A stretch of 64,000 nt of DNA from Cryphonectria parasitica EP155 (lineage: Eukaryota > Ascomycota > Sordariomycetes > Diaporthales > Cryphonectriaceae). Every line of letters begins with the position of its first letter. The first letter of the stretch is position 1. This document shows positions 1,108 to 50,431 of this stretch, piece by piece. A model generated the notes under the pieces. It was given only the letters and a program-made list of their open reading frames with translations. It ran no database searches and was not told the DNA's origin. A program made the translations under genes and the position numbers. Where the stretch lies: the NCBI RefSeq assembly GCF_011745365.1, contig NW_024468910.1:4678068-4742067 (forward strand), read 5' to 3'.

Positions 1108-1130
1108 AGCTGCTCCTACGCTTTCTCAAT

Positions 1131-2989: not shown

Positions 2990-3108
2990 CAAAGCTCGAA
3001 AGCTCGAAAATCGAAAGCTTGAAGGTTAAAGGCTCGAAGGTCAAAGGCTCGAAGGTTAAAGGCTCGAAGGTTAAAAGCTCGAAAGTCAAAGGCTCGAAGG
3101 TTTGAAAA
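2990..3108. repeat. 15-bp purine-rich array in TRIM
   Basis: About seven units near GAAGGTTAAAGGCTC. The complementary strand reads as a 5-residue protein repeat (TFEPL-like), which I regard as a by-product. Confidence 0.85.
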
Positions 3109-3438: not shown

Positions 3439-5726
3439 CTTCGTTCCAGGAAATAATCAATCACATTCTATGCAAGCATCTGAATCAATTTATCATTGCT
3501 TATCTTAATAATATCCTTATCTACTCTCGAATACTTGAAGAGTATAAGAAATATATAGAAATAGTATTGCAAATACTTCAAGATGCGAAACTTCTTGTAG
3601 AATCTGCAAAGAATTACTTTCACGTACAAAAGATTAACTATCTCGGATTTACAATCAAACCAGGATGCATTAAGCTATAGAAAAATAAGATAGAAGCTAT
3701 TAGGAATTAGCCAGTTCTTAGGAATGTTAGGAATATTAGATCTTTCCTCGAATATATCAACTTCTATAAACAGTTTATTAAGAATTATAGCTGAATCATG
3801 CATTCTCTTACGAATCTTACTAAAAGAGATTAACTCTTCAAATGAACCTTCAAAGCACAAGAAGCCTTTGATAAGATTATTAAGTATATTATCTTAGAGC
3901 TAGTTCTGTATAAAGCAGACTCTTATAAATCCTTTGAAGTTGAGACTAATGTATCGAGATATGCACTCGGAGAATAACTTAGCTAGCGAGATGATTAAGA
4001 GCATCTAAGAATTATAAGCAACTTCTCAAAGAAGTTAAATAGCTCAGAAATCAACTACAGAATCTCTAATCAGGAACTTATAGTAATAATAAAAGCTTTC
4101 AAGAAGTAGCAATACTATTTTATTAGCATATAATACTCGATTATAGTTCACTCGGATTACAAGAATCTGATTATATTTATAATAACTAAGATTTTGAATA
4201 AGCAATAAGTTAGATGAACAGAATTTCTCTTATAATTCGATTTCAAGATTGTATACTACAAAAGCTTGGAGAATAAATGAGCGGATGCTCTTAATAGAAG
4301 ATTAGACTATCAAGATACAGATTTCTCGGATATATAAAATATCTTTGCTCAAGATAAATTAGAAAATCTTATTAATATATATAGAGAACTAAATGCTGCT
4401 CTTAGAATAGAATTCTTAGAAGAAAATTCAGAATTGATAATTTCAGATGAGCAAAATAACTATATCAAGAATGTATATAATGCATTAGCATATGAATATT
4501 AGGAAGTTAAAGTAATCTATAAATGCATCAAAAGATATTGAAACTTACCAAGCCTTAGAAAAAGAATTGAAAACATTCTATAACAATGCAATAGCTGCAA
4601 GAAGAATAAAGCAGAAAGATATAAGCTTTATAAACTACTATACTTCTTACTAGTACTTATAACTATTTAGTAATCCATTAATCTAAACTTTATTACTAAG
4701 CTATTCTTCTTATAAGAACTCTTAATTAAGATGTAATATAATAGCATTCTAGTAGTAATTTGCAAACTGAGCAAGTATGCTTACTTTCTTTCTTATAAGG
4801 AAAGCAGTATAGTAGAAGAACTTGCATATGCATTTCTTAGAATAATTATTGCTAATTATAGCATACTAGAAGAAGTAATCTCTAATAGAAATAGGAAGTT
4901 TAACTTGAAATTTTGAACTTTACTTATAAAACAGCTTGAAATATACTATAGAATATTTATAGTATTTCATCTGCAGATAGATAAATAGATAGAAAGAATA
5001 AATTAAATTATTAAATAGTATCTTCAATACTATATTAATCAGAAATAGAATAACTGAGTTAATCTATTGCTTCTTATACAGTTCGCTTATAATAGCGTAG
5101 ATATAAGCATAATAAAGAAATCACTATTCTTCATACTCTATAAATATAATCCAACAGCTTACTACAAAGTATTGCTGGGAGTAGATGCAGAAGCTGCGGA
5201 TAAAAGAGTTAAGAAGATTAAGAAAGTTCAGAAGGAATTCCGATCAGAATTACAATTCGTTCAAGAATGAATAATGCAGTATATAAACTCTAAAAGGATT
5301 GAGAAACTAATTCTACAGAAGGAAGATAAGATTTATCTACTTCGAAAAAATATCAAAATAACAAGATCTAGCAATAAACTCGATTATAAGAAGTTAGAAC
5401 TATTCAAAATCTTATAACAGATTTCTCTAGTTAATTATAAATTAGTATTATCTTATAAGATAAGAATATACTCAGTTTTTCACATTTTACTGCTGGAATC
5501 AGCAGTATAGGAAATATTAATGAATAATATAGCAGAAGTGGAAAACAATAAATCAGAATATAAGATAGAAAAGATTCTCAAGCACAGAAGCATAAACAAT
5601 ATAAGGGAATATCTTATCAAATGAAAAGATTATTCAGCAAGTGAAAATTCATGAGAACTACGAGAGAATGTTGAAAACGCTCAGGAAAGGATAGCTGAAT
5701 ATTGGAAAAGGAAAGCTAGTATCTAA
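3439..5726 (+). pseudogene. pol: pol of element A, second part (RT palm to chromodomain)
   Basis: Resumes RT after the TRIM. The catalytic box reads YLNNILIYS from 3501: both Asp codons of YLDD are now AAT. The RNase H start reads FEVETN near 3935. The integrase zinc region ends in CNSCKKNK near 4600, the integrase core begins near 4740, and the second core acid region (IERIN) lies near 4990. A chromodomain follows at about 5557-5700 (EYKIEKILKHRS, then EYLIK, then SASENS). Stop TAA at 5724-5726 overlaps the stop of the antisense gene. Ancestral function: DNA synthesis, RNA removal and integration, with the chromodomain reading heterochromatin marks. Confidence 0.88.
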
Positions 5727-6370
5727 GATGATCGCTCCACTCCGAACTAAGATCCAAAAGCCTTAGAAACCTTGCTCTTCAGAAAATCCAATCAATCTAT
5801 TACTGCACTTCTCAAATCCACGGAATCTCAGTTGAAATCTTCAAAGAAAGAATCTCCAGCTACAACAGCAGATTCCTCCGCTACTACAGCCTGCACTTCA
5901 GCAGCAATACACACCCTCTCAGCTTCAGCTTTCTCAGCTTTCATACAATCCAATTCCTTTATGCAAGTAATGCTATAATGCAGAGCACATTTCATCTTTT
6001 CGGATTATATCCGCTTCTATTAGCGCAAACAGAGAAGCTTAGTTTCTTTCTTCTTAATCTCATTCTCCAACTTTCAATATTGAATAATGATATTGCAAAG
6101 CTTCTTGGAAAAAGAGCTTATAATATTGTACTTGAAGCAGCTTAATTGAATACATTCGATGCAATAAGAAGAGTTTCTGGGAAACATCTTATAAAACTCG
6201 AAACTATAATTCTTACAATAGGAATAAATGAGCATTTCAATAAAATTTTCCAAGAAGCAGGAAATCAAGAGATCTTGATCTTGGATACTCTTTGGAATGA
6301 AAGAAGGTTTGCAAATACAGAATTTATTGATTCTGTTTAACATTTCAATCAGAAAAGCAAGATTATGCAT
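5723..6370 (-). pseudogene. Antisense accessory gene (asORF) of element A
   Basis: Runs opposite to Gag-Pol from ATG at 6370 to TAG at 5725-5723, 216 codons, one frame throughout. The first 98 codons are open (MHNLAFLIEML start), with a Cys-rich patch (YCIECIQLSC) near residue 72. A TGA (CGA in element D) and further RIP-type stops follow. The middle is Lys/Glu-rich and heptad-like (KLENEIKKKETK, then KAEKAEAER), and the end reads EDFN-stop-DSVDL...GVERSS, matching the FDWNSV region of other copies. No family recognised. No intron in this copy. Its conservation across copies with distinct sequence argues it was a real gene rather than a mirror of the 3' untranslated region. Confidence 0.8.
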
Positions 6371-11100: not shown

Positions 11101-11705
11101 TATTCTTTATACTTTATAAATATAATCTAATAGCTTATTATAAAATATTGCTAGAAGCAGATATAAAAGCTGCAAATAAAAGAATTAAGAAGATTAAGAA
11201 GATTTAGAAAGAACTTTAGTTAGAATTACAATTCATTCAGAAATAAATAATACAATATATAAATTCTAAAAGAATTGAGAAATTAATTCTATAGAAGGAA
11301 AATAAGATTTATTTACTTCAGAAAAATATTAAAATAATTAAGCTTAGTAATAAATTTAATTATAAGAAGTTAGAATTATTTAAGATCTTATAATAAATCT
11401 TTCTAATTAATTACAAATTAGTATTATTTTATAAGATAAGAATATACTTAGTTTTTCATATCTTACTGCTAGAATTAGCAGTATAAGAAATATTAATGAA
11501 TAATATAGCAAAGATAGAAAATAATAAATTAGAATATAAGATAGAAAAAATTCTTAAGCATAGAAGTATAAATAATATAAGAGAATATCTTATTAAATAG
11601 AAAAGTTATTTAGCAAGCAAAAACTTATAAAAACTACAGAAAAATATTAAGAATGCTTAGAAAAGAATAGCTGAATATTGAAAGAGAAAGAAAATCAGTA
11701 TCTAG
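8140..11705 (+). pseudogene. pol: pol of element A' (protease to integrase; C-terminus eroded)
   Basis: Begins at the protease active site, read as ILLNSSA from 8160 (D of the D-S/T-G/S triad changed to N). RT box YLNNIL at 9477. RNase H, the integrase zinc region (near 10500) and core follow. The chromodomain part (about 11536-11680) is recognisable by alignment with element E, with Lys-stop replacing Lys-Trp. Stop TAG at 11703-11705 overlaps the antisense stop. Dozens of in-frame stops of the CAA/CAG/TGG type; no indel at the checkpoints. Confidence 0.85.
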
Positions 11706-12343
11706 AATAATTGCTTCATTCCGAACTGAAACTCAGAAACTTCAGAAATCTTGCTCTTCAGAAAATCCAATTAATTTATTACAGAATTCCTTACATCTAC
11801 AGAATTCTAATCAAATCTCTCAAAGAAAGAATTTCTAATAGCTACAGCTAACTCTTCCAAAATAGCCTTCTATATAGCAGTAGTAGCATAGCAATATTTC
11901 TCTTCAGCTTTCTTAGCTTCAATGCAATTCAGCTTCTTTATATTATTAATACTGCAGTAAATAGCATATATTATTTTCTCAAACTATATTCGTTTCTGCT
12001 TGCATAGCTAAAGAATCTTCTTCTCAGCAGCCTGCAGCTCATTCTTCAGCTTTTAGTACTGAATAGCAATCTTATACAGCTCTGAAGAACTAATATCTTA
12101 TACATTGTATTGGGAACGATTGAATCGAATATATTCAGTGCAATAGAAAGAATCGAGAGAAGAAACTTAGCAGGAAGAAATGCTTTAATTCTTACAAAAT
12201 AAATAGAAAAGCATAGTAAAAGAATGTTGAAGAATAGCAAAAAGAAAGCTTTTATATTTCTTAGTTTTTCAAGAATAAGACTTGGGAATACGAGATTTAT
12301 TAATTCTATTCAATATTTTGATTAAAAAAGCAAGATCATATAT
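11702..12343 (-). pseudogene. Antisense accessory gene of element A'
   Basis: One frame of 214 codons from a lost start (ATA at 12343) to TAG at 11704-11702. Recognisable blocks: Cys patch SFYCTEYI, IAIQY-stop-KLKNEL, LCKQKRI, then KKLNCIEAKKAEE and FERFD-stop-NSVDVRNSVIN. Same order as in A, D, F and G. Multiple RIP-type stops. No intron. Confidence 0.78.
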
Positions 12344-18000: not shown

Positions 18001-18739
18001 AATAATTGAGTTAATCTATTACTTCTTATACAGTTTACTTATAATAGCATAAATACAAGTATAACAAAGAAATCACCATTCTTCATGCTTTACAAATACA
18101 ATCCAACAGCTTACTACGAGATATTACAAGAAGCAGATACAGAAGCTGCAAACAAAAGAGTTAGAAAAATTAAGAAGATTTAAGAAGAACTTCAATCAGA
18201 ACTACAATTCATTCAAGAACGAATAATATGCTATGCAAACTCCAAAAGGATTAAGAGATTAATCCTATAGAAGAGAGATAAAGTATATCTACTTTGCAAA
18301 AACATTAAAATAACCAGGCTTAGCAGCAAACTTAACTATAAGAAACTAGAACTATTTAAAATTCTACAAAAAATCTTTCTAATTAACTACAAACTTATAC
18401 TATCTTACAGAATGAAGATATACTCAGTTTTTTACATCTTGCTACTAGAATTAGCAGTAAAAGAAATACTAATAAACAATACTATGGAAATCGAAAATAA
18501 TAAACTAGAATACAAGATAGAAAAGATTTTCAAATACAGAAGCAATAATAATATGCTTAAATATCTCATTAAGTAGAAAGATTATTCAGCAAGCGAAAAC
18601 TTATAAGAACTGCAGAAAAATATTGGAAATGCTAGAAAAAAATTGATAAAATACTAAAAAACAAAAACTAGCTTTAATCCTACTACTACATCATTAGCAG
18701 TTATTTTAGCATTATAATAATAACAGAAATCACTACTTA
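15001..18739 (+). pseudogene. pol: pol of element B
   Basis: Reads in the -1 frame relative to gag and overlaps its end. Protease ALLNSS at 15148, RT box YLNNIL at 16453, RNase H FEIETDASEY near 16886, integrase zinc region near 17466-17570, integrase core, and chromodomain with EYKIEKIFKYRS at 18508. Frame checked at three points. The C-terminus differs from A, D and E: after KYW-like it runs on into a Thr/Leu-rich tail overlapping the end of the antisense gene, so the exact stop is uncertain and may lie beyond 18739. RIP stops throughout. Confidence 0.83.
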
Positions 18740-19355
18740 AGACCTCCCTATCTCAGAACAGAAATTAGATGCTACAATTCCACCCAAAACGCTATCCCAA
18801 TCCACCACATCAAAAGCATCCCAAGACTGAGCCTCAGCTACAGCTTCAGATTCAGCAGCATGCTAAGCATTCTCCTTCCGATGCTCCTCCTCCTTCAGCT
18901 TATTCAGAAAATGCAGATTCTGACTAACTATCTTTGCGCTATAATCATGCAGAGAACATTTCTGTTTCCGCAAACATACTAAACGAGCTATTATCTCGCT
19001 CAATTTAGATTAAAGCTTAAAAAGAACTTTCTCTGCATTCAATTCCTTCCGATTTAAACAATTAAGCTTAGTAGTAATATGAAATACTATCAGAGAAATC
19101 AGAAGGCAAATAAGAAATAACTCAGAAAAGAACAAATCTATAAGCATTTACTAAAATATTAGAATTATTACAGAAACAATTCCAGCGAATATAATAGAAA
19201 TATCTTTTAATATCTTCTATTATCTTATACTCCAACTTCTTCGAAATATAGAAAGAATAAAGCATAACTTTAAAATCTTGAAGATTAATAATTAGAGAAA
19301 GCTGAAAGCATTATTCGGATTTTCGAGAAAGAAACTTCTCAATTCTATTCAACAT
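18737..19355 (-). pseudogene. Antisense accessory gene of element B, two exons
   Basis: Exon 1 from ATG 19355 to 19142, exon 2 from 19086 to TAA at 18739-18737, joined length 564 bp (188 codons). The upstream ATG seen in other copies is lost here. Readable parts: KRYFYYIRWNCFC (Cys patch), KLSEIIARLVCLRKQKCSL, the coiled KLKEEEHRKENA, then DAFDVVDWDSVLGG near the end. The block LSEIIARLVCLRKQKCSL aligns with ISESAARLARLRIQRRSL in element E. The tail is relatively GC-rich (about 18740-18960). Divergent from the A/D/F/G type. Function unknown. Confidence 0.75.
19087..19141 (-). other. Probable intron of the element B antisense gene (55 bp, decayed)
   Basis: Needed to join the two frames: 55 bp, phase 1, ending CTGATAG. 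Its first bases are AT instead of GT; the preceding base is T, so a TG-to-TA RIP change explains it. Same position and phase as the element E intron. Confidence 0.6.
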
Positions 19356-20602: not shown

Positions 20603-20926
20603 ATGCTTTTCTAATTTATTATATTAAGCAGAGTTAATAAATCTTGTATTTGTAAATCTTCTTCTGTTTCAAAAAATATCCAAGATTAAAATCTCTTAGT
20701 TTCCTGTTTCTTGAAGAATTTTGTTGAGATGCTTATCTATTCTTATTATAAGGAATATAGCTTCGAATTCTATAAAGCGTTTTCTGGAAACTTTTCTTGT
20801 TGTATTGAATATATTTGCTTGGATTGCTTTAAGTGCAATATTATAAATTTCTTCTTTAAGAAGCTTTGTAATATTGCTACTTAATATTGAAAGTTGGAAA
20901 ATGAGATTGAGAAGAGGAAGATTAAG
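20603..20926 (+). pseudogene. Antisense accessory gene of G, N-terminal part
   Basis: From ATG 20603, 324 bp until element F interrupts it; the rest is 50117-50431. Joined length 639 bp, 213 codons, in frame. Readable: INKSCICKS-like start, VEMLIYSYYKEYSFEFY, a dense Cys patch CCIEYICLDCFKCN (near 20800-20840; pattern C-x4-C-x2-C-x2-C), then KLENEIEKRK. Stops are RIP-type. Confidence 0.8.
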
Positions 20927-21446: not shown

Positions 21447-21917
21447 ATGCTTTTCTAATTCATTATATTAAGCAGAATTAACAAATCTTGCATCTGCAAA
21501 TCTTCTTCTATTCTAAAAAGTATCTAAGATTGAAATCTCTTAGTTTCCTGCCTCTTGGAGAATTTTATCGAGATATCTATCTGTTCCTATTATAAGAAGT
21601 ATAGCTTCGAATTCTGTAAAATGTTTTCCGGAGATTCTTCTTATTATATTAAATATATTTGTCTGGATTACTTCAAGTATGATATTATAGATTCTTTCTC
21701 TAAAAAGCTTTGAAATATTGCTATTTAATATTGAAAGTTGGAGAATGAGATTGAGAAGAGGGAAATTGAGCTTTTCTATCTATATTAATAGAAGCGAATA
21801 TAGTTTGAGAAGATGAAATATGCTCTGCATTATAGCATTATTTGCATAGAAGAGTTGGATTGTATGGAGGCGGAGAAGGCTGAGGCTGAGAAGGTGTATG
21901 TTGCTGCTAAAGTGTAG
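21447..21917 (+). pseudogene. Antisense accessory gene of F, N-terminal part
   Basis: 471 bp from ATG 21447; continues at 43675-43842 after element C. Joined 639 bp, 213 codons, the same length as in G. Contains the block KLENEIEKREIEL, LHYSIICIEELDCMEAEKAEAEK and VAAKVQ at the break. The near-perfect frame after removal of 21.7 kb of insert is strong support for both gene and insertion model. Confidence 0.82.
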
Positions 21918-25930: not shown

Positions 25931-27846
25931 ATACGGAATACAATAGCTTCTCCAGAAACCCCTTCGTTCTCACGCGCCCCCACTCAGAAGAAACTGATTA
26001 ACCAGGTATACCAGCTTACTTAGCATATCCAGAATCTGCACGAATAACAGCAGGCTTAGAATGCTACTATTGCTAACCAACAGGCTCAGCTAGCTCAACA
26101 GACTCAGCAGATGCAGTTCACTTCTGCAAATACTAGTAGCATTAGAAAAGCATACAAGATGAATAAGCTTGCTATATATAATAGCAATCAAAAGATGCTG
26201 TATGGATTTCTTATTCACTGTAAAGCATACTTTTTGCACTATGCAACTCAGTTTACTACGGAATTTAAGAAGATTATTCTTGCAGGAATTCATCTTAAGA
26301 AAGATGCTCTTATCTAGTATAAACCTTCTCTGTACAACTACTTGAAGCATTAGAGCAATTCCGATATGCATATCTAGAATACTAAGAATATATTTGATTC
26401 TTTTAAAAGCTTCGAGAAAGCTCTTAAGAAAATCTTTGATAATTCCAATAAAGAATATATTACAGCTTAGCAGCTTATAAACTTCAAGCAGACTAAATCA
26501 GCTTCTGCTTATATAGTTAGATTTAAGCAGCTCTTAGTAAAACTTTTATAGAAAAACAAGAATCTCATAAAATACTATTATAAGAAACTTAAGAATAATA
26601 TTAAGAATGAAATCTTTAAGCAGAATTAGCTAGAGAACTTTGCAATATTTTTCAATTAAGCTATTCGCATTAATAATTATCTGTATAAATAATGGATAAA
26701 GAAGTTCAAAAAGAAAGAAAGCTAAACTTGAAGATTTCCAGCTAATACAAGCAAGAAATTCCAAAATAAGAATAGCAGTTGATATAGCAGTATAGCTTAG
26801 AGCAGCACTATGTATACTAATTCTATGAAACTTAATACTGCTAATAAGCAATATAGCAAGAGAAATAGTATTACTTGCTATAACTGCAACAAATAAAAGC
26901 ATATTGTATACAACTGCTATCAATCTCAGAAGAATAAATAGCAATTAGTTCAGAAAGAATGCTAGATGAATATTGCTTAATAACAGAAACTTAATTAACT
27001 AAGCAAAAATACTCTCTTGAAGCAAGTATCGGATTCTATTAATTATAGAAATCTTAGCTGAATATTCTGCTATAATAATAACTGCTTAATATATCTTTCA
27101 AATAAGAAAGATTCAGAATGATTCCCTTAGAAATCTTAGCACTGTAGATAAATAGCAACAGCAGAGCGAGAGTATACGCTCAGCATTCCTACGAATAGCA
27201 ACTCGGATTGCTCTAATGTTATAGAATAAAGCATTCAGGCATTGAAAGAAGAGCTTAGCAATAATACTTTTCAATATTCTTTATTGCTTATACTAAGCAT
27301 TATAATTAGGAATATGAATAAGAGATAATATTCTCTTAGCTACTAGCATGAATATCTAGATAATATAGAGAATGCTTCTCAAGCAACAGAAGAATTAAGT
27401 TAGAACAAACAATCTAGCAGCTTGCAAAAGCTCTCTGCAAACAACATATCCAACAAGCTTAAAGAAAGGTTTCTCTTTAGCATTGAGTGAAATAAGAAAA
27501 CAATATAAATCGAATATCTTATTTACGGAATAGAGCTAGAAGAGCTCTTCATCTGCATTTCCTTGCAGAACATTGAAGCATAATAAGATAAAGATTCTTA
27601 GATCAGCTTATTTTACAATCTATACTATAAATTAGCTTGAATCTTCTGCATATATTATAGCTGCAGAACGCATTTCTCAAATAAAGTATAATACAAATAA
27701 TTCCTTATCAGAAAATCAGAATAAATCCTTTAAGCTATTGAAGAATAGGAATTCCGCTTCAGAGAAGTTTTCAACAAGCAATACTATAATACATATATTA
27801 AGCTACTGAATAATTATTCTATGCAATGCATAGATAAAAAGATAGA
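25931..27846 (+). pseudogene. gag: gag of element D, first part
   Basis: From ATA 25931 to the insertion of E; ends at 35548-35550. Joined length is exactly 704 codons. The zinc knuckle at 26876-26917 reads CYNCNK-stop-KHIVYNC and keeps the His lost in most copies. The second Cys cluster starts at 27068 (CYNNNC). Open stretches: 26111-26317. Confidence 0.86.
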
Positions 27847-28300
27847 TGTTATAACCTATCCAACATGCAGGTCACGAAACAGGTCACGAGCAACAAGGAC
27901 CAGGTGTTAAGAACCCAACGTTCTGACAAAGCATTGATTACATAACCTAGGAAGGAGATAGGAATGGATTACTAGGAGCATCAGGAGCGCAGCTTACTAA
28001 GCTTACCCGGATTACTGCAGTAATCCGCGGGATGCTATCAGACAGTGATTCATACTAAAGAGCTGAATATATAAGAATACAGTCATTATCATTAGAAGGA
28101 TTCAGTACATAGCTCTTCAGTTGTTAATCTAAGTATTCAGTCTCATATACTGAGTAGCTCCAAAAGCAGTGAATACTTGCATTGCTTATTAGAACTTGTA
28201 CAGTTCCGTATTCAAGAACTTAATATTTTAATATCGCTCTTGTTAGCATAAACCTCTTTATATACTTAGGAATCTTCGGATTGCTGCAGTACTTATTATA
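27847..28300 (+). repeat. 5' LTR of E (454 bp)
   Basis: Starts TGTTATAACCTATCC, ends TACTTATTATA (CA changed to TA). Compared with the 3' LTR I see only transitions and no length change. Confidence 0.93.
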
Positions 28301-28347
28301 TTTTGATAATTCTTATTCAAGAACGGTTCAGTATTATCCCTTGAGCA

Positions 28348-30462
28348 ATACAGAATACAATAGCTTCTTCAGAAACCCCTTCGTTCTCGTATACTCCTAC
28401 TCAGGAAGAACTAGTTAACCAGGTATACCAGCTCATCCAGCATATTCAGGATCTGTGCAAACAACAGCAGGCTCAGAGCGCCACTATTGCTAACTAGCAG
28501 GCTCAGCTAGCTTAACAAGCTCAGCAGATGCAGTTCATCTCTGCAATCACTAGTGGTGCTAGAAAGGCTTATAAGATGAATAAGCTTGCTATATATAATA
28601 GCAATCAGAAGATGCTATATAAATTCCTTACTTACTGCAGAGCATACTTTTTGCATTATGCAATCCAGTTTACTATAGAATCTGAGAAGATTATCCTTGC
28701 AGGAACTTGCTTCGAAAAGAATGCTCTCATCTGGTATAAGCCTTCTCTGCACAATCACTTGGAGCATTAGAACAATCCTAGCGCGCATATTCAAAGTACT
28801 AAGAATATGTTTAATTCTTTTAAGAGCTTTAAGAAAGCTTTTAAGAAGATCTTTGATAATTCCAACGAAGAATGTACTACAGCTCAGCAGCTTATGAATC
28901 TCAGGCAGACTAAATCAGCTTCTGCTTATATAATCAGATTCAAGCAACTCTCAGTACAATTCTTATAGGAAAACAAAAATCTTATAGAATACTATTATAA
29001 GAGATTTAAGAATAACATTAAGAATGAGATCTTTAAGCAGAATTAGCTAGAGAACTTTGCAACATTCTCCAATTAAGCTATTCGCATCAACAACTATTTA
29101 TATGAACAATAGATAGAGAAGTTTAAGAAGAGAGGAAGCTAAACTTGAAGATTTCCAGCTAATACGAGTAAGAAACTTCAAAATAAGAATAGCAATCGAT
29201 ATAGCAGTATAGCTTAGAGCAGCACTATGCATACTAATCCTATAGAACTCAATGCAGCTAACAGGCAGTATAGCAAGAGAAACAGCATTATTTGTTATAA
29301 CTGCAACAAACAAGAATACATTGTATACAACTGCTATCAATCTCGGAAGAACAAATAGCAATTAGTTCAGAAAGAATGCTAGATAAATATCGCTCAATAA
29401 CAGAAATCCAATCAATTAAGCAAAAATATTCCTTCGAAGCAAGTATTAAACTCTATTAATTACGAAAATCTTAGCTGAATATTCTGCTATAATAATAACT
29501 GCTTAATATATCTCTTGAGTAAGAAAAGCTTAGAATAGTTCTCTCAGAAATCTAGATGCTGCAAACAAATAGCAACAGCAGAATGAGAATGTATGCTCAG
29601 CACTCTTACAAATAGCAACTCGGACTGCTTTAACATCATAGAACAGAGCATTCAAGCATTGGAAGAAGAACTTAGCAATAATATTCTTCAATATTCTTTA
29701 TTGCTTATACTAAGCATCATAACCAGAAATATGAATAAGAAATAATACTTCTTTAATTACTGATACAAGTATATAAATAATACTGAAAATGCTTCTTAGG
29801 CAACAGAAAGATCAAGCTCGAACAAACAATCTAACGATTTACCGGAGTCTTCCGTGAACAACAATGAACCCAAGAAGCTTACAGAAAGATTCACCTTCAG
29901 CATTGAATAGAACAAAGAAACAACATGGATCGAATATCTCATTTACAGAATAGAGCTGAAAGAGCTCTTTACCTGCATCCCCTTACAGAATATCGAGATA
30001 TGAGAAGATAAGAATTCTCGAATCAGCTTACTTTACAATCTATATTACAAACTAGCTTAGATCTCCTGCATCTATTATAGCTGCAGAATACATTTCTTGA
30101 ACAAAGTGCAATACGAATAGTTCCTTATCAGAGAACCAGAATAAATCCTTCAAGCTATTGAAGAACAAAAACTCCGCTTCAGAAAGATTCTTAACAAATA
30201 GCACTATAATGCATATATCGGATTATCAGATAACTGCTCCAAACAATGCATGAATAAAAAGATAAAATAGTAGCAATATGAAACAATATTCTACACAATT
30301 CATATTAATAACAAGATTTGCAATTAGCATTAATAGAAGAAAGACTAGAAATAATAATAATACAAGCAAAAGCAAGCTAAGAAGCTTGCTTAAGAAGTAG
30401 CAAAGCAGGCTTAGAAGAATAAGCAGTTCTTAACAAACTCAAAAGAACAGAATTATCTATAA
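28348..30462 (+). pseudogene. gag: gag of element E
   Basis: 705 codons from ATA 28348 to TAA 30460-30462, one frame. N-terminal Gln-rich coiled region (QLIQHIQDLCKQQQAQ), capsid-like domain (80 open codons at 28528-28770), zinc knuckle CYNCNKQEYIVYNC at 29293-29334 (His changed to Tyr), second Cys cluster from 29485 (C-x4-C-x2-Y-x15-C), an FSIE...TTWIEYLIY segment near 29890, and a Lys/Gln/Ala-rich stretch (KQKQAKKLA) just before the stop. Large for a fungal gypsy Gag because of about 370 residues after the knuckle. Nonsense codons only. Confidence 0.87.
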
Positions 30463-33400
30463 AGGAACTGCAGATAATCAAACTAGAACAGTTTCTATAT
30501 AAAGCTTCTAGAACAGATTATGCTTACATCAAGTTCAATATATATATTCAAGAATACAAATACAGCATACTATTGAATAGTAGCGCTTAGAGAAACTTTA
30601 TATTCCTATACATTATCAATCAAGTACAACTACAATAGAGATAGAAGAGATATCTATATACTCTCAGCACTATAAAAGAACAATCTATTGCATACAACTA
30701 AGAAGTGATTAATAAGAAAACTAATTATCTACTTATCTTAATCCAAGAACATGCAATCAGAGCTTCTTTTAACATTATAGATACAGCACAATATAAGCTG
30801 ATTATAGAACTTCTATAGCTTAAGAAGCATAATTCTTGAATCAATTAGACTATTAGCTAGATCTTATAAGAACAAGCTGTATCCAGAAAGATAGTTATAA
30901 TCAATAGCGCAGGATTGAAGCTAGTAGTTGAAGAATACTTAGAAAAAGAAGCTTCATACAACTTCCTATATACTTCCAAGTTAGCAGAGCTAGCAGCTTA
31001 AGGAGAAGAATCTAGTAATAAGCGAACCCAAATAGTGCCAGAGCGCTAACAGATTAGCAAAACAACGAAGCGAGATTCTCAGCAAGTCAGTTCGCTTCGG
31101 AGCAACAAGGAAAGGCTTCAGAAAGTGAATTGTAAATCTATACAGGAAAACCCTCGTAAACCAAGCCCTCAAGCGCTTGCTTCAGCCCGGAGCGGACGCT
31201 CAAAGCCCTTGAAAATGCCATCAGAAAAGAAGCACGCTCAACAGTATCTACTGTTTCTTCAGATAGCAGAAACAGTACAAAGACCAGAATCAATACTTGC
31301 AAACATATTACGAGAATACTACAAGTTTAAGAAACTATTCCAGAAAGAATTGAATATAGAATTGCTAGAATACAGCTCATACAACTACAAGATTCTGCTA
31401 CAAGAAGAGAAACAGCCCAAATTCTTTCTTATTTACAAACTAGATAAGGTACAGCTAGAAGCACTTCAGAAATATCTCAATAAGAATCTTAAGAAAGAAT
31501 ACATATAATCATTATAATTACTAGCAGAATATCCTATCCTGTTTATACCTAAGAAAAATAGTAAGCTTAAGCTATATATTAATTATAAGTAACTCAATAA
31601 TATTATAATCAAGAACTAATACTCATTGCTACTCATTAAAGAATTATGAGATAGATTGCAAGAAGCATAATAGTTTACAGCTTTAGATTTAAAAGAAGCT
31701 TATAATCTGATCAGAATAAAGAAAGGAGAAGAATGGAAAACTGCTTTCAGAATATGCTATAGATATTATAAATATTTGATTATACTCTTCAGTTTAATGA
31801 ATATTCCAGCTTCATTCCAGAAAATGATTAATTATATTTTATACAAGCATCTGAATCAATTTATTATTGCCTATCTTAATAACATTCTTATTTACTCTTA
31901 AACATTGAAAGAATACAAGAAGCATATGGAAACAGTATTGTAAACGCTTCAAGATGCAAAACTCCTTATAGAACTCGCAAAGAATCATTTTTACATACAA
32001 AAAATTAACTACTTCGGATTCACAATCAAGCTAGAATATATTAAGCTACAGAAAAACAAAGTAGAAGCTATCAGAAATTAGCCAGTTCCTAGGAATATCA
32101 GGAATATTAAATCTTTCCTCAAATACATCAACTTCTACAAACAGTTTATTAAGAACTATAGCTGAATTATATACTCTCTTACAAATCTTATCAAAAAAGA
32201 ATAGCTTTTTGAATGAATCTTTAAGACACAAGAAGCTTTCAATGAGATTATCAAGCATATTATCTCAGAACCAGTTCTATATAAAGCAAATCTCTACAAA
32301 CTCTTTAAAGTTAAGACTAATGTATCAGAATATGCACTTGGAGAACAATTTGGTTAGCAAGATAACTAAGAATATCTAAGAATTATAAGCAACTTCTCAA
32401 AGAAGTTGAATAGCTCGGAAATCAACTACAAGATCTCTGATCAGAAACTCATAGCAATAGTAAAAGCCTTTAAGAAGTAATAATACTACCTCATTAGCAT
32501 ACAATACTCGATCATAGTTCACTCAGATTACAAGAATTTAACTATATTCATAACAACCAAGATTTTGAACAAGCAACAAGTTAGATGGGCAGAATTCCTT
32601 TCACAGTTCAACTTCAAGATTATGTACTGCAAAAGCTTAGAAAATGAACAAGCAAACGCTCTCAGCAGAAGATTAGATTATCGAGATGCAGATTCCTCGA
32701 ATATATAGAACATCTTCGTTCAAAACGAGTCAGAAAATCTTATTAATGCATATAGAGAACTAAATACTGCTCTCAGAATCAAACTCTTGGAAAGAAATCC
32801 AGAATTAATAATTCCAGATGAATAAAATAACTATATCAAGGATATATACAGTACACCAGCGCACAAGCATCAGAAAGTTAGAGCAATCTATAAATATATT
32901 AAAAAATACTAAAATTTATTAGATCTTAGGAAAAGAATTGAAAGCATTCTACAACAATGCAACAGCTGCAAAAAGAATAAAGCAGAAAAATACAAGCCTT
33001 ATGAATTACTGCATCTCTTATCAGTACCTATAACTATTTAGCAATTCATCAGTCTAAACTTCATTATCAAGCTATCTCTCTTATAAGAACTCTTAACTAA
33101 GATGCAATACAATAGCATTCTAATAATAGTTTGCAAACTAAGCAAATACGCTTACTTTCTTCTCTACAAGAAAAGCAGTATAGCAGAGGAACTTGTATAT
33201 GCATTCCTCAGAACGATTATCGCTAACTACAGTACGCTAGAAGAAGTAATCTCTAATAGAAACAGAAAGTTCAATTCAAAGTTTTGAACTTTACTCATAA
33301 AATAGCTTGGAATATACTATAGAATATCTACAGTATTCCATCTATAAACAGATAAATAAATAGAAAAAATGAATCAGATTATTAAACAGTATCTCTAATA

Positions 33401-34097
33401 CTATATTAACCAGAAACAGAATAATTGAATCAACCTATTGCTTCTTATATAATTCATTTATAACAGTGCAAACATAAGTATAATAAAGAAATCATTATTC
33501 TTCATACTCTATAAATACAATCCAACAGCTTATTACAAAGCATTGCTAGAAGTAGATACAGAAGCTGCGAATAAAAGAGTTAAAAAGATTAGAAAAGTTC
33601 AGAAAGAATTCCAATCAGAACTACAATTCGTTCAGGAACGAATGATACAATACACAAACTCCAAAAGAATTGAGAAACCAATCCTATAGAAAGGAGATAA
33701 GATCTATCTACTTCGAAAAAACATTAAAACAACTAAACCTAGCAACAAACTCAATCATAAAAAGTTAGAATCATTCAAAATCTTGCAACAGATTTCTCCA
33801 GTCAACTACGAGTTAGCATTATCTCATGGAATGAGGATATACCCAGTTTTCCACATCTCACTGCTGGAACCAGCAGCACAGAAAACACTAACAGACAATA
33901 CAGCAGAAGTGAAAAACAATAAATCAAAATATGAAATAGAGAAGATCCTCAAGCATAGAAGCACAAACAACACGAGAGAATACCTCATCAAGTAGAAAGG
34001 TTACTCAGCAAGTGAAAATTCATGGGAACCACGAAAGAACGTCGAAAATGCTCAGAAAAAAGTAGCTGAATATTGAAAAAAGAAAGCCAGCACCTAA
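30420..34097 (+). pseudogene. pol: pol of element E (PR, RT, RNase H, integrase, chromodomain)
   Basis: About 1,226 codons in one frame, -1 relative to gag. Protease ILLNSSA at 30567; linker open 31125-31508; RT box YLNNILIYS at 31872; RNase H near 32302 (TDAS read as TNVS); integrase zinc region ending CNSCKKNK near 32970; integrase core 33102-33287, where the catalytic Asp of VISDR reads Asn (33246) and the later Glu is kept (IEKMNQ near 33355); chromodomain YEIEKILKHRS at 33930, then EYLIK and KGYSASENSWEPRKN near 34000-34040. Frame confirmed at protease, RT, chromodomain and stop (TAA 34095-34097, overlapping the antisense stop). Only nonsense changes. The chromodomain is expected to bind methylated histone H3 and direct integration. 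Confidence 0.9.
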
Positions 34098-34830
34098 GAC
34101 AACCGCTCCAGCCCGAAGAGAAGCCCAGAGCCCATCATCTCACCCAAAAATCCAGAATAATCCACAACAGCCCCACTAGGATTAACAGAGTTCCAGTCAA
34201 AACCATCAAACAAGAGATCCTCAGCCAAAATACTCTCAGCTGATACTGCTTCACAAACCAATGCAGCAAGATTGCATTCCTCCTCCTCACAACATTCCCG
34301 CTCATCCAGCTCATCAAGGGACTCAAAGCCCGCATTCACCATTTAAGCGCCCCAAGAAGCAAGAGATCTACGCTGAATGCGCAGGCGAGCAAGACGAGCA
34401 GCGGACTCCGAGATCTTCGCACAAGCCTTGTCAAGGACTTCCAACGCTCAACGATAAGCCCCCTCCAACTCTGCCTCCGCCTCCCGCTCCTTCGATTCCA
34501 GCCTCTTATCTTCTGCTATAATGCGCGAAACTAAGGAAAGAAGAAGAGCATCAGCAAAGGGATTAGAAAAGAAGAAAAAGAGAACTTACAAGCAGAAACA
34601 GAAACCTCACAGCCATTACAAGAACGAGCATGACAGATATACTGAGAACAACGCTTTGCATCATCCATCATCTTGCATACCAGGCTCCGGAAAGTACAAG
34701 CAGTGCAAAGCATAATCTCAAAACCAAACTAATCAACAGCTAGGAAAAGACGGTTATGCTATTCAGTTTTCTTAGAAAAAGATTTCTCAACCCTGCTCAA
34801 CATCTCAATTAGAAAGGCAAGATTATGCAT
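34094..34830 (-). pseudogene. Antisense accessory gene (asORF) of element E, two exons
   Basis: Exon 1 34830-34590, exon 2 34530-34094; spliced 678 bp, 226 codons, ending TAG at 34096-34094. It starts MHNLAFLIEMLSRVEK, shared with A. Exon 1 carries a Cys-rich region (CTACTFRSLVC, then RCSQYICHARSCNGCE: C-x4-C-x4-C-x2-C). Exon 2 opens with a charged coiled coil (AEDKRLESKEREAEAELEG), then KISESAARLARLRIQRRSL, an acidic patch (DELDERECCEEEE) and the tail FDGFDWNSVN...FGLERLS. Four in-frame stops, none with a frameshift. GC content is clearly above the rest of E. No family recognised: the Cys pattern suggests metal binding, the rest protein-protein contacts. Expression must start inside or near the 3' LTR on the opposite strand. 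Confidence 0.83.
34531..34589 (-). other. Spliceosomal-type intron in the element E antisense gene (59 bp)
   Basis: Begins GTAAGT, has CTAAT and GCTGAT branch-like words, a pyrimidine-rich tract and ends TTTCCTTAG. Phase 1. Its removal joins the Cys-rich and coiled-coil frames exactly, with no stop at the junction. All signals are on the minus strand, so the gene was transcribed antisense to gag-pol. Confidence 0.8.
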
Positions 34831-34895
34831 ATGGAAAACTTGCTAGAATATTTACAGAAGATCATTAGGAACAACGATCGATAGAAGGAAGATGA

Positions 34896-35349
34896 TGTTA
34901 TAACCTATTCAACATGCAGATTACGAAACAGATCACAAGCAACAAGAACCAGATATCAAGAACCCAACGTTCTAACAAAGCATTAATTACATAACCTAGG
35001 AAGGAAACAGGGATGGATTACTAGAAGCACTAGAAGCGCAGCTCACTAAGCTCACCCGGATCACCGCAGTAATCCGCAGAACGCTGCCAGACAATAATTC
35101 ATACTGAAGAGCTGGATATATAAGAACACGGTTATTATCATTAGAAGGATTCAGTACATAGCTCTTCAATTATCAATCTAAGTATTCAGTCTCATACACT
35201 GAGTAGCTCCAAAGGCAGTAAACACTTGCATCGCTTATTAGGACTTGTACAGTTCCGTATTCAAGGACTTGACACTTTGATACCGTTCTTGTTAGCATAA
35301 ACCCCTTCGTGTACTTAGGAATCTTCGGATTGCTGCAGTGCTCATTACA
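34896..35349 (+). repeat. 3' LTR of E (454 bp)
   Basis: Starts TGTTATAACCTATTC, ends GTGCTCATTACA, followed by ATAGA and the resumption of gag of D. Confidence 0.93.
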
Positions 35350-35550
35350 ATAGAATAATAGCAGTATAAAATGATATTCTGTATGATTCATATCAAAAAC
35401 AAAGTTTGCAATTAGCATTAATAGAAGAAAGACTAGAAATGATAATAATACGAGCAAAAGCAAGCTAAGAAGCTTGCTTAAGAAGCAGCAAAGCAAGCTT
35501 AGAAGAATAAGCAGTTCTCAACAAATTCAAAAGAATAGGATTGCTTGTAA
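35350..35550 (+). pseudogene. gag: gag of element D, end
   Basis: Lys/Gln/Ala-rich C-terminus (KQKQAKKLA) and stop TAA at 35548-35550, in frame with 25931-27846 once E is removed. Confidence 0.84.
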
Positions 35551-38500
35551 AGAGATTGCAAATAATCAGATCAGAACAATCTCTATATAAAGCTTTCAGA
35601 ACAGATTATGCTTACATCAAGTTTAATATATATATTCAAGAATACAAATACAATGCACTATTGAATAGTAATGCTTAGGAAAACTTCATATTCTTATACA
35701 TTATTAATCAGATACAACTACAATAGAGATAGAAGAAATACTCATATACTCTCAGTACTATAAAAGAATAATCTATTGCATACAATCAAGGAGTAATTAA
35801 TAAGAAAACTAATTATCTATCTATTTTAATTCAAGAATGTATAACTAAAACTTTCTTTAATATCACAGATACAGCATAGCATAAGCTAATTATAGAACTT
35901 CTATAGCTTAAAAAGCACAATCCTCGAATTGATTAAACTACTAGCTAGCTTTCATAGGAACAAGCTGTATCCAGAGAAATAGTTACAATCAATAATACAG
36001 AATCGAAGCTAGTAGTTGAAGAATATTCAGAAAAAGAAGCTTCATACAACTTCCCACATACTTTCAAATCAGCAGAGCTAGCAGTTCAAGAAGAAGAATC
36101 TAATAATAAGCGAATCCAAATAGTGCTAGAGCGCTAATAGATTAGCAAAATAATGAAAGCGAGACTTTCAGCAAGTTAGTTCGCTTCGAAGCAACAAGGA
36201 AAAGCTTCAGAAAGTGGATTATAAACCCATACAGGAAAAATCTCGAAACCAGGCTCTCAAGCGCTCAATCCAGCCTGGAGCGAATGCTCAAAGCTCTCGA
36301 AAATGCTATCAGAAAAGAAGCATGCTCAACAGTACTTACTATTCCTTCAGATAGCAGAAACAGTATAGAAATCAGAACTAATACTTGCAAACATATTACA
36401 AGAATATTACAAGTTTAAGAAACTATTCCAGAAAGAATTAAATACAGAATTGCTAGAATACAGCTTATACAATTACAAGATCTTGCTACAAGAAGGAAAA
36501 CAGCTCAAATTCTTCCTTATTTACAAACTAGATAAAGCACAGCTAGAAATACTTAAGAAATATCTTGATGAGAATCTTAAGAAAGAATATATATAACTAT
36601 TGCAATTACTAGCAGAATATCCTATCCTATTTATATCTAAGAAAAATAGTAAGCTCAAGCTATATATTAATTATAGATAACTCAATAATATCATAATTAA
36701 AAACTAATATCCATTGCTACTTATTAAGAAACTATAAAATAGATTGCAAGAAGCATAATGATTTACAATTCTAAATCTAAAAGAAGCTTATAATCTAATC
36801 AGAATAAAAGAAGGAAAAGAATGGAAAACTGCTTTTAGAATATGCTACGGATACTACGAATATTTAATTATGCTCTTTAGTTTAACAAATGCTCTAGCTT
36901 CGTTCTAAGAAATAATTAATCACATTCTATACAAGCATCTGAATCAGTTCATTATTGCTTATCTCAATAATATTCTTATCTATTCTTAAATACTTGAAAA
37001 ATACAAGAAATATGTGAAAACAGTATTGCAAACGCTCCAAGATGCAAAACTCCTTGTAGAACTTGCAAAGAATCATTTTTATATATAAAAGATTAACTAT
37101 CTCGGATTCACAATCAAGCTAGAATGTATTAAGCTACAGAAAAACAAGGTAAAAGCTGTTAGAAATTAGCTAGTTTCCAAGAATATTAGGGATATTAGAT
37201 CTTTCCTCGAATATATCAACTTCTATAAGCAGTTCATTAAGAACTACAGCTGAATTGCATATCTTCTTACAAATCTTATCAAAAAAAAGCAATTCTTCAA
37301 ATAAACCTCTAAAGCATAAGAAGCTTTTAATAAAATTATCAAGCATATTATCTCAGAACCAGTTCTATATAAAGCAAATCTCTATAAACCCTTTGAAATT
37401 GAGACTAATGTATTAGAATATGCATTCAGAGAATAACTTAGCTAGCAAGATAACTAAGAATATCTAAGAATTATAAGCAACTTCTCAAAGAAGTTGAATA
37501 GCTTAGAAATTAATTATAAAATCTCTAATTAGAAACTTATAGCAATAATAAAAGCTTTTAAGAAGTAGTAATATTATTTTATTAGCATATAATACTTAAT
37601 CATAGTTTACTCGAATTATAAGAATCTAATTATATTCATAACAACTAAGATTTTGAATAAGTAATAAGTTAAATAAGCAGAATTTCTCTTATAATTCAAC
37701 TTCAAGATTATATACTGCAAAAGCTTAGAGAATGAACAAGCAGATGCTCTTAGCAGAAGATCAGATTATCGAAATGCAGATTCTTCAGATATATAGAATA
37801 TCTTCATTCAAGATAAGTCAGAAAATCTCGTTAATGCGCATAGAGAACTGAATGCTATCTTCAGAATTAAACTCTTGGAAAAGAATTCAGAATCAATAAT
37901 TCCAGATAAACAAGATAATTATATTAAGAATGTATATAGTATACTAGTATATAAATACTAGAGAATTAGAGCAACTTATGAATATATCAAAAGATATTGA
38001 AATCTATTAAGTCTTAAGAAAAGGATTAAGAATATTCTATAATAATGCAATAGCTGCAAAAAGAATAAAGCAGAAAGATATAAGCTTTACAAACTACTGC
38101 ACTTCTTATTAATACTTACAACTATTTAGCAATTCATCAGTTTAAACTTTATTATTAAGCTATTTCTTTTATAAGAACTTTTAACTAAAATATAATATAA
38201 TAGCATTCTAGTAATAGTTTGCAAACTGAGCAAGTATGCTTATTTTCTTCTTTATAAGGAAAGCAGTATAGCAGAAGAACTTATATATATATTTCTCAGA
38301 ATAATCATTGCTAATTATAGCATATTAGAAGAAGTAATCTCCAATAGAAATAGAAAGTTTAATTCAAAGTTTTGAACTTTACTTATAAAACAGCTCGAAA
38401 TATATTACAGAATATCTATAGCATTCTATCTGCAAATAGATGAATAGATAGAAAGAATAAATCAGATTATCGAATAATATCTTTAATACTATATTAATTA

Positions 38501-39185
38501 GGAATAGAATAACTAAATTAATCTGTTACTTCTTACATAGTTTGCTTATAATAGCGCAAATATAAGTATAATAAAGAAGTTATTATTCTTTATACTCTAT
38601 AAATATAATCCAATAGCTTATTACAAAGCATTGCTAGAAGCAGATATAGAAGCTGCAAATAAAAGAGTTAAAAAGATTAAGAAAGTTTAGAAGAAACTTC
38701 AATTAGAATTATAATTTGTTTAGGAATGAATAGTATAATATACAAACTCTAAAAAAATTAAGAAACTAATTCTATAGAAGGAAAATAAGATCTATCTACT
38801 TCGAAAAAATATTAAAATAACTAGATCCAGCAACAAGCTTAATTATAAGAAGTTAGAACTATTCAAAATCTTATAACAAATCTTCCCAGTTAATTACAAG
38901 TTAGTATTATCTTATGAAATAAGAATATATCTAGTTTTCCATATCTTATTGCTGAAACTAGCAGTACAGAAAATACTAACAAATAATACAGCAAAAGTAG
39001 AAAATAACAAATCAGAGTATAAGATGAAGAAGATTCTCAAGCATAGAAGTACAGACAGCATGAGGGAATATCTCATCAAATAGAAAGATTATTCAGCAAG
39101 CGAAAATTCTTGGAAACTGCAGAAAAACATTAAAAATGCTCAGGAAAAGATAGCTGAATATTGGAAAAGGAAAACCAGCACTTAA
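35508..39185 (+). pseudogene. pol: pol of element D
   Basis: Protease ALLNSNA at 35655, RT box YLNNIL at 36960, RNase H near 37396, integrase, chromodomain at about 39015-39160, stop TAA 39183-39185. Same frame at protease, RT and stop. Offset to gag is -1 (after excision of E), as in B, E and H. Stops are CAA, CAG or TGG derived. Confidence 0.87.
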
Positions 39186-39835
39186 GACGATCGCTCCATC
39201 CCGAATCGGAATCCAGAGCTCCCAGAAGCCTCATTCTCCAGAAAACTCAACCAGTTAATCACAGAATTTCTCAGATTCACAGAATTCCAATCAAAACTCT
39301 CAAAAGAAGAATCTCCAGCTACAACAGCAGATTCCTCAGCTATTACAGCCTGCACTTCAGCAGCAATATGCATCCTCTTAGCTTCAGCTTTCTCAGCTTT
39401 CTCTTTCTCAAGCTCTTCAAGATTCTTAAAATCTCAGCAAATAGCTCGAGATATTTTCTCATGCTATATCTTCTTTTATTAATACAGTTAAAGCAATTTT
39501 AATTTCAATTCTTCTATCTCATTCTCTAGCTTTCGATGCTGAGTAGAGATAAGAAGGAGTTCAGCAGCATTCATTAGCTCCAGAATGTTGCACTTAGCAT
39601 AATTCTAAGAGATGCACTCCAAGCAACAGAATGAATCGTAAGAAGAAATAATATACAATTGCAAGCCTTAACTATTATAATAAGAACAGAAATGCATATT
39701 GAAACTGTTTGAAAGAATAAACTAAAGAAGAAGATCTTTCTGCTTCTTTTTATTAAAGCAAGGATTTAAAGATTTCAGTTTTGCAACTTTGTTAATTCTA
39801 TTCAGCATCTCGATTAGAAAAGCAAGATCATGAAT
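39182..39835 (-). pseudogene. Antisense accessory gene of element D
   Basis: One frame of 218 codons from the family start position (ATT for ATG at 39835; next ATG 39808) to TAA at 39184-39182. Cys patch CCLECISQNYAKCN, QHRKLENEIEELK, then the open tail from 39373: HIAAEVQAVIAEES and FESFDWNSVNLRNSVINW, ending FGMERSS. CGA at the position where A has TGA shows the RIP path. No intron. Stop overlaps the Pol stop. Confidence 0.82.
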
Positions 39836-43674: not shown

Positions 43675-43842
43675 GCTGTAGTAGCTGAGAAATCTGCTAT
43701 TATAGCTGAGAATTCTTCTTTTGAGAGTTTTGATTGGAATTCTGTAGATTTAGGAAACTTTGTAATAGACTGATTAAGCTTTCTGGAGAATGAGATTTCT
43801 GAAGCTTTTGAGTTTTGATTCAGGGCGGAGTAATCATTCTAA
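43675..43842 (+). pseudogene. Antisense accessory gene of F, C-terminal part
   Basis: 168 bp completing 21447-21917: AEKSAIIAENSSFESFDWNS-type tail, TAA at 43840-43842, overlapping the Pol stop (43839-43841) of the opposite strand. Confidence 0.82.
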
Positions 43843-50116: not shown

Positions 50117-50431
50117 CTTCTCTATCTGCATTAGCAGAAGTAGATATAATCCAAGAAGATGAAACATGCTCTGCATTGTAGTATTACTTGCATAAAGGAA
50201 TTGAATTATATGAAAGCTGAGAAGGCTAAAGCTGAGAGAGTGTATATTGCTGCTAAAGTGCAGGCTATAATAGCTGAGAAATCTGCTATTATAGCTAGGG
50301 ATTCTTCTTTTGAGAGTTTTGATTGAAATTCTGTAAACTTGGGAAACTCTGTGATAGACTGGTTGGGTTTCCTGAAGAGTAAGATTTCTGAAGCTCCTGA
50401 GTTTCAGTTTGGAATAAAGCAATCGTCCTAA
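50117..50431 (+). pseudogene. Antisense accessory gene of G, C-terminal part
   Basis: 315 bp: coiled segment KAEKAKAERVYIAAKVQAII, then FESFD-stop-NSVNLGNSVIDWLGF and FGIKQSS, TAA at 50429-50431. Overlaps the Pol stop 50428-50430. Continues 20603-20926. Confidence 0.82.

What the first reader, a model, noticed from the sequence alone, without database searches (positions are those of the whole stretch)
34094..34830. A conserved third gene, antisense to gag-pol, carried by a fungal chromovirus
Between Pol and the 3' LTR every sufficiently complete copy carries a reading frame on the opposite strand: A 5723-6370, A' 11702-12343, B 18737-19355, D 39182-39835, E 34094-34830, F 21447-21917 plus 43675-43842, G 20603-20926 plus 50117-50431, and a stub in C. 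Lengths are 188-226 codons. Order of features is constant: start MHNLAFLIEML-like, Cys patch, charged coiled coil, FDWNSV-like motif, GxERSS-like end. B and E are strongly diverged from the A/D/F/G type, yet keep these features, and stops are RIP-type rather than frameshifts. Extra antisense frames near the 3' LTR are known in some plant gypsy elements; I know of no named family matching this one.
Basis: partly seen in the sequence, partly recalled or inferred. Interest (0 to 1): 0.92.

Follow-up and report, generated by a model that had tools for sequence, protein, structure and literature searches.

The report
Backward third gene in fungal retrotransposon
A gypsy-type jumping element in a fungal genome carries, on the strand opposite its usual genes, a third protein-coding gene that selection has preserved across its subfamilies; it is predicted to be spliced in some of them and likely helps regulate the element, and a gene in the same position (brtn) was already reported from grey-mould elements.

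Summary
Some copies are open as they stand. Between subfamilies nonsynonymous change is lower than synonymous change in 21 of 21 pairs, and random placement of the same changes reached the observed ratio in 0 or 1 of 200 shuffles in each of six pairs tried. New here: in three of six subfamilies, the finding's own copy E among them, the gene holds a predicted antisense intron of 51-59 nt at one position and phase. Intron length varies in 17 of 35 copies, while only 3 of 65 copies break frame in the exons, all three truncated or interrupted. The protein has six spaced cysteines and a charged core, and matches no Pfam family. 'No named family' is too strong: brtn (Zhao 2011) is an antisense gene of Boty-like gypsy elements, named in four held papers. 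Homology to BRTN could not be tested. Function (likely an HBZ-like regulator made from the 3' LTR) is inferred. Verdict: a real gene, a new variant of a known kind.

The parts
27847..28300 (+). 5' LTR of the complete element carrying copy E (454 bp; preceded by ATAGA at 27842-27846)
   Evidence: blastn pairing 27839-28298 with 34889-35347, 88%; ends read by eye
28345..34097 (+). degenerate gag-pol of copy E (start approximate); stop codon TAA at 34095-34097
   Evidence: sequence; chromodomain PF00385 and SH3_Tf2-1 shown on sister copy L005
34590..34830 (-). antisense gene, exon 1 (241 nt from the upstream ATG; a second in-frame ATG at 34803): six-cysteine segment
34531..34589 (-). predicted antisense intron, GTAAGT...CTGAT...CTTAG, 59 nt
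   Evidence: splicing itself not observed
34094..34530 (-). antisense gene, exon 2 (437 nt): charged, probably coiled-coil core, FDWNSV motif, LERLS end; stop codon shares two bases with the pol stop (sense CCTAAG)
34880..34895 (+). polypurine tract (GATAGAAGGAAGATGA), directly before the 3' LTR
   Evidence: read; junction matched within 3 mismatches in 47 of 65 loci
34896..35349 (+). 3' LTR, 65 nt from the antisense ATG; would hold the antisense promoter (predicted); followed by ATAGA 35350-35354
5723..6370 (-). copy A of the antisense gene, subfamily I-like
11702..12343 (-). copy A' of the antisense gene, subfamily I-like
18737..19355 (-). copy B of the antisense gene, with predicted 55 nt intron
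39182..39835 (-). copy D of the antisense gene, no intron needed
21447..21917 (+). copy F, 5' piece, subfamily I-like
43675..43842 (+). copy F, 3' piece
20603..20926 (+). copy G, 5' piece
50117..50431 (+). copy G, 3' piece

Best explanation
This is a third, protein-coding gene of a family of chromodomain gypsy elements, lying antisense between pol and the 3' LTR and held under purifying selection; its protein is predicted to bind zinc and form a coiled coil, and it would likely act as a nuclear regulator of its own element, made from a promoter that likely sits in the 3' LTR. Shown: position, frame conservation, codon-level selection, naturally open copies, and the intron pattern. Predicted: splicing of that intron in three of six subfamilies. 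A GT-AG intron on this strand reads CT-AC in the genomic (sense) RNA, so the transposition template would keep it while the antisense mRNA loses it; that would explain how an intron survives rounds of reverse transcription. Inferred: antisense transcription from the U3 end of the 3' LTR, zinc binding by the six cysteines, dimerisation by the charged core, and a role in controlling LTR transcription or the pre-integration complex, as HBZ does from the antisense strand of HTLV-1 (recalled).
For: Position: pol C-terminal sequence on the opposite strand at the antisense stop in 63 of 65 loci, and an LTR anchor upstream in 63 of 65. Selection: pN<pS in 21 of 21 pairs, in both parts of the gene; null placement reaches the observed ratio in 0 of 200 shuffles for five of six pairs tried and 1 of 200 for the sixth; the other two antisense frames give pN/pS 0.81-1.53 and carry stops in every copy. 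Transversion-variable columns by codon position: E 7/11/25, B 12/9/18, D 5/7/16. Intron: same position and phase in E, B and H ([A/S]|LSRI); transversion columns 8 of 59 (E) and 11 of 56 (B) in the intron against 24, 27 and 59 of 632 at codon positions 1, 2, 3 of E, B and D pooled; acceptor AG kept in 33 of 35 copies and a branch-like YTRAY present in 35 of 35; length differs from the commonest in 8 of 16 E and 9 of 19 B copies, while before the FDWNSV-type motif 3 of 65 copies have a frame-breaking exon gap, all three truncated or interrupted (L056, L068, L069), none a small indel. Naturally open over the stretch fetched: L003 (once the intron is removed), L075, L076, L077, L078. Six cysteines in register.
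Against: No transcript, splice junction, protein or activity was seen; no RNA data were available. Nothing tests the regulator role. No Pfam family passes its cut-off, and none listed is Zn_clus or bZIP; no PDB chain matches (one search lists one at E 7.2). Donors are often altered: 5 of 16 E copies depart from GTRAGN, and 10 of 19 B copies begin AT instead of GT. In H the intron is 51 nt, a multiple of three, so its frame is open unspliced as well. In B the codon-position test alone is not significant (p 0.20). In the C-terminal part E-B and B-J are near neutral (dN/dS 0.92 and 0.79). Part of the 3' end is shared between subfamilies by exchange, so pairs are not independent. Core pS is near saturation in many pairs (5 of 21 gave no ratio).
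Confidence: 0.55

Rival explanations
1. The antisense protein is an accessory factor other than a transcription regulator: for example it counters host silencing, or works in particle assembly or nuclear import of the element.
For: Same coding evidence as the main reading. Antisense genes of plant gypsy elements are discussed as nuclear or accessory factors of unknown role (PMC7264820, passages). Copies decay by C>T change, so the host attacks the element or leaves it to decay, and counter-silencing would be useful.
Against: No domain match points to any such role. The cysteine spacing of E and B is that of DNA-binding fungal zinc clusters (comparison recalled).
Confidence: 0.25
2. The conserved unit is a spliced antisense regulatory RNA feeding silencing; the open frame is incidental.
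For: In Blumeria hordei, spliced antisense transcripts of transposable elements, Ty3 elements among them, were read as noncoding, and introns were verified in two of eight cloned lncRNAs (PMC10648671, passages). Antisense transcripts are proposed to make siRNA (PMC7264820).
Against: Change is concentrated at third codon positions of one antisense frame, and indels avoid the exons. An RNA-only function does not predict this.
Confidence: 0.08
3. The stretch is a plus-strand extension of Pol or an env-like gene and the antisense frame is its shadow.
For: Sense frame 1 also shows pN/pS of 0.40-0.71, as expected if its third positions coincide with those of the antisense frame.
Against: That frame holds 2-5 stops in each copy of all six pairs, the other sense frames hold 1-8, and pol ends at its own stop after the chromodomain.
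Confidence: 0.02
4. A host gene fragment was captured once and is carried passively by all subfamilies.
For: The gene is richer in G+C than the pol side of the same copy in 8 of 8 copies measured, by 9-16 points.
Against: Subfamilies near synonymous saturation still keep the frame, most of the cysteines and an FDWNSV-like motif. 63 of 65 loci examined lie beside pol, and no free-standing host copy was seen, though not all matches were opened.
Confidence: 0.05

Closest known systems
[quoted passage not shown] 2011)
   Same: Fungal gypsy element with chromodomain; additional gene antisense, between pol and the 3' LTR (PMC7264820, PMC8365987, PMC4227169, PMC5987419; passages only)
   Different: The original paper is not held, so its sequence, motifs and any intron are unknown to me; homology not tested. 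The ITS of this host (L074) looks to me like Diaporthales (recalled, not tested), not Sclerotiniaceae.
Antisense genes of plant gypsy elements: Grande gene23, RIRE2, Retand ORF with TRP28 (PF04195)
   Same: Antisense between pol and 3' LTR; some nuclear or predicted to bind DNA (PMC7264820, PMC11963269; passages)
   Different: Plants; Retand is a non-chromovirus lineage; TRP28 not among the Pfam matches here; the word 'intron' does not occur in the main text of PMC11963269
HBZ of HTLV-1
   Same: Works-like model: antisense gene read from the 3' LTR, spliced, nuclear, coiled coil (recalled)
   Different: bZIP protein of a retrovirus; no bZIP match here; no sequence relation claimed
Fungal Zn(II)2Cys6 cluster (PF00172)
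   Same: Cysteine spacing Cx2Cx6Cx8Cx2Cx6C in E and B type fits the recalled pattern Cx2Cx6Cx5-12Cx2Cx6-8C
   Different: No PF00172 match; D and I types are spaced Cx2Cx7Cx9Cx2Cx7C; H lacks one cysteine
Spliced antisense lncRNAs of transposable elements, Ty3 among them, in Blumeria hordei
   Same: Antisense, spliced RNA from elements of a fungus (PMC10648671, passages)
   Different: Authors found no meaningful peptide; whether any overlaps such a gene is untested

Membership tests
brtn-type antisense gene of fungal gypsy elements | antisense to gag-pol, between pol and 3' LTR | tested here: met
   63 of 65 loci
brtn-type antisense gene of fungal gypsy elements | carrier is a chromodomain gypsy element | tested here: met
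   PF00385 E 2e-16 in pol of sister copy L005
brtn-type antisense gene of fungal gypsy elements | sequence homology to BRTN | not testable with these tools
   no BRTN sequence held; protein search failed five times and was then capped; source paper not held
Zn(II)2Cys6 cluster PF00172 | six cysteines at Cx2Cx6Cx5-12Cx2Cx6-8C (recalled) | tested here: inconclusive
   met in E (L003) and in B (L052 exon 1); D, I, J spaced otherwise; H L075 and B L046 each lack one
Zn(II)2Cys6 cluster PF00172 | match to the Pfam model | tested here: not met
   not among matches at E up to 1 or 10
plant TRP28 antisense ORFs | PF04195 domain | tested here: not met
HBZ-like antisense retroviral regulator | spliced antisense transcript from the 3' LTR | not testable with these tools
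   intron predicted; no RNA data
HBZ-like antisense retroviral regulator | bZIP domain | tested here: not met
   no bZIP match

The most novel reading that the evidence does not exclude
Fungal chromoviruses have, independently of HTLV-type retroviruses, evolved a spliced antisense regulator gene: a zinc-cluster/coiled-coil protein read from the 3' LTR whose intron is hidden from the genomic RNA by strand, spread as an unnamed family through many subfamilies, so that some antisense 'noncoding' RNAs of fungal Ty3 elements are really its messages.
Probability: 0.3. Interest if true: 0.8.

Novelty: new variant of a known kind. Interest (0 to 1): 0.55.

Why it matters
Antisense genes of LTR retrotransposons have been listed for years, but PMC7264820 and PMC11963269 (passages) call their function unknown. 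Here one genome holds at least six diverged subfamilies and natural open copies, so codon-level constraint could be measured rather than assumed. The antisense intron gives a yes/no test: one RT-PCR or long-read experiment across the predicted junction shows whether the gene is expressed. If the protein acts on the LTR, it would parallel HBZ and suggest that antisense regulators arise repeatedly in LTR elements. It also warns that antisense RNAs called noncoding in fungal elements may carry short spliced genes.

Tried and rejected
Tried without result. (2) IMG/VR scan with the D-type protein: 46 pattern matches, none confirmed. (3) Pfam and PDB sequence: only matches below cut-off. (4) Zhao et al. 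2011 is not held. (5) Structure prediction was not run: its stated rule admits window sequences and loci of other tools, and the open copies came through the genome search and the fetch from genomes.

Considered and rejected: plus-strand Pol extension (stops in all sense frames); chance open frame; classical RIP as the decay process (no CpA preference; the product and substrate indices, TA/AT 0.36-1.09 and substrate 1.21-2.66, are not clearly in the classical range either, as I recall it); a second intron in the 5' leader. For the last, GTRAGT lies 50-53 nt before ...AG|ATG in 36 of 52 anchored copies (E 9 of 13, B 10 of 13, D 17 of 26), but the acceptor is GAG or AAG and the branch-like site very close, so I only note it.

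Slips in my own work. One search aligned loci without turning them to one strand; it was redone and one search is not used. Exon gaps: one search counted terminal gaps and exchanged 3' ends as indels (8 of 16 E, 5 of 19 B, 0 of 30 D); one search cut the exons at an arbitrary point (1 of 65), cut at the FDWNSV-type motif and without terminal gaps, replace both (E 2 of 16, B 1 of 19, D 0 of 30). In one search the exchanged 3' ends were left in, which may add some transversion columns.

Full report
What was checked. The window is G000:C2:4678068-4742067 of a 43.8 Mb assembly in 17 contigs.

The observation. A, A', F and G are nearest to a subfamily that I call I (L078), D to L076/L077, E to L003, B to L046. 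Copy E sits in a complete element, about 27847-35349, with 454 bp LTRs and the same five bases ATAGA on both sides. The antisense ATG at 34830 lies 65 nt from the 3' LTR. The antisense stop and the pol stop share two bases (sense CCTAAG).

Genome-wide. DNA searches gave 41 places for E (40 of 70 candidates scored), 40 for D (40 of 267 scored) and 23 for B (23 of 23). A protein search gave 159 matches with 150 of 395 candidates scored. I used 65 loci of the three types, L001-L057 and L062-L069; eight short or partial loci (L058-L061, L070-L073) were left out of the counts. In 63 of 65 the pol C-terminal sequence lies on the opposite strand at the antisense stop (exceptions L056, L069), and in 63 of 65 an LTR anchor lies upstream. 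Naturally open over the stretch fetched: L003 once its predicted intron is removed, and L075, L076, L077 and L078 as single frames; L075 and L078 were not fetched to their starts. L079 and L080 share an internal stop.

Selection. Pairwise Nei-Gojobori counts on seven natural sequences of six subfamilies gave pN<pS in 21 of 21 pairs, for the N-terminal core and for the C-terminal part. The clearest unsaturated pair, D L077 with I L078, has dN/dS 0.25 in the core and 0.12 in the C-terminal part. Near neutrality are the C-terminal parts of E-B (0.92) and B-J (0.79). In six pairs I placed the same base changes at random 200 times: the observed pN/pS (0.33-0.60) was reached 0, 1, 0, 0, 0 and 0 times. 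The other two antisense frames gave 0.81-1.53 with stops in every copy. Sense frame 1 gave 0.40-0.71, as expected if its third positions fall on the same bases, and has 2-5 stops in every copy. Within types, columns with transversions by codon position were 7/11/25 (E, p 0.002), 12/9/18 (B, p 0.20) and 5/7/16 (D, p 0.025). Transversions were used because the C>T decay of copies makes transitions. The test is not significant in B alone.

The intron. In E the frame changes at a stretch that begins GTAAGT and ends CTTAG, with a CTGAT or CTAAT branch-like site. B has a stretch of 55 nt at the same place, and L075 (subfamily H) one of 51 nt; the last is a multiple of three, so H is open with or without splicing. 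Removing each gives the same junction, [A/S]|LSRI, in the same phase. Lengths differ from the commonest in 8 of 16 E and 9 of 19 B copies, two B copies by a run of T. In exons before the FDWNSV-type motif, 3 of 65 copies have a frame-breaking gap: L068, L069 and L056, all truncated or interrupted by other sequence; none is a small indel. Transversion columns are denser in the intron (8 of 59 in E; 11 of 56 in B) than at third positions (25 of 225; 18 of 187). So the stretch behaves as an intron of the antisense gene. Splicing was not observed. Donors are damaged in many copies: 11 of 16 E copies fit GTRAGN, and 9 of 19 B copies begin with GT; the acceptor AG stands in 16 of 16 and 17 of 19. 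D, I and J copies are single frames and need no intron.

Decay. C>T changes against the chosen natural copy occur at CA/CC/CG/CT at rates 0.19/0.18/0.24/0.10 (E), 0.34/0.30/0.37/0.20 (B) and 0.25/0.29/0.35/0.12 (D). The direction is that of RIP; the CpA preference of the classical process (recalled) is absent.

The protein. About 195-216 residues from the shared ATG. Six cysteines in register: Cx2Cx6Cx8Cx2Cx6C in E and B, Cx2Cx7Cx9Cx2Cx7C in D and I (B L052 exon 1). Then a core with 33-45% charged residues and 1-4 prolines plus glycines, then FDWNSV or a variant and a short tail. It matches no Pfam family above cut-off and no PDB chain below E 1. The spacing of E and B fits the recalled pattern of fungal Zn2Cys6 clusters, but PF00172 does not match, so I do not file it there. 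The coiled coil is a reading of composition, not a prediction run.

Known work. brtn is named as an additional antisense gene of Boty-like retrotransposons in the title of Zhao et al. 2011, which I saw only as a reference. PMC7264820 (passages) places it between pol and the 3' LTR in B. cinerea and S. sclerotiorum and calls the function of such genes unknown. PMC5987419 (passages) reports a Monilinia transcript with similarity to BRTN. PMC11963269 (passages) describes TRP28 antisense ORFs in plants. PMC10648671 (passages) reports spliced antisense RNAs of transposable elements in Blumeria, read as noncoding. Eight searches of the library listed no title or abstract opening on a spliced antisense coding gene in a fungal gypsy element; I read passages of seven papers only, so this is weak evidence of absence.

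Mechanism. I commit to an antisense-transcribed regulator, HBZ-like in layout, made from the 3' LTR. Layout, coding constraint and intron pattern are shown; transcription, splicing, zinc binding, nuclear action and control of the element are inferred. The main rival is another accessory role, such as counter-silencing.

Noticed in passing
E, B and D copies genome-wide: C>T decay of the copies shows no CpA preference (CG highest, CT lowest), unlike classical RIP as I recall it; the process may be a broad-context RIP or deamination of methylated cytosine.
   Followed up: partly
3' part of the antisense gene, e.g. L006, L008, L061, L063 against L003: Copies of one subfamily carry the 3' end of another (for example E body with D-type tail), as if template switching swapped the end next to pol.
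   Followed up: partly
about 34803-34857 and the same place in other copies: GTRAGT followed 50-53 nt later by CTAAT..AG|ATG is conserved as DNA in 36 of 52 anchored copies: a possible second, leader intron, or a replication signal by the polypurine tract.
   Followed up: partly
34860-34879: A GATCGTT...AACGATC-like hairpin beside the polypurine tract (one mismatch in this copy), recognisable in several subfamilies.
   Followed up: no
L042 and L049 (B type): The predicted intron carries long runs of T (84 and 86 nt against 55).
   Followed up: no
30262-30561 and 35350-35649: The flank right after the element carrying copy E repeats an internal stretch of that element at 87%, as if it were inserted in a relative.
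   Followed up: no
1016-3102: G+C-richer tandem arrays (periods 17, 37, 73, 82 and 15-45) with long, probably accidental open frames.
   Followed up: no
antisense gene against the pol side, eight copies: The antisense gene is 9-16 points richer in G+C than the pol side of the same copy in 8 of 8.
   Followed up: partly
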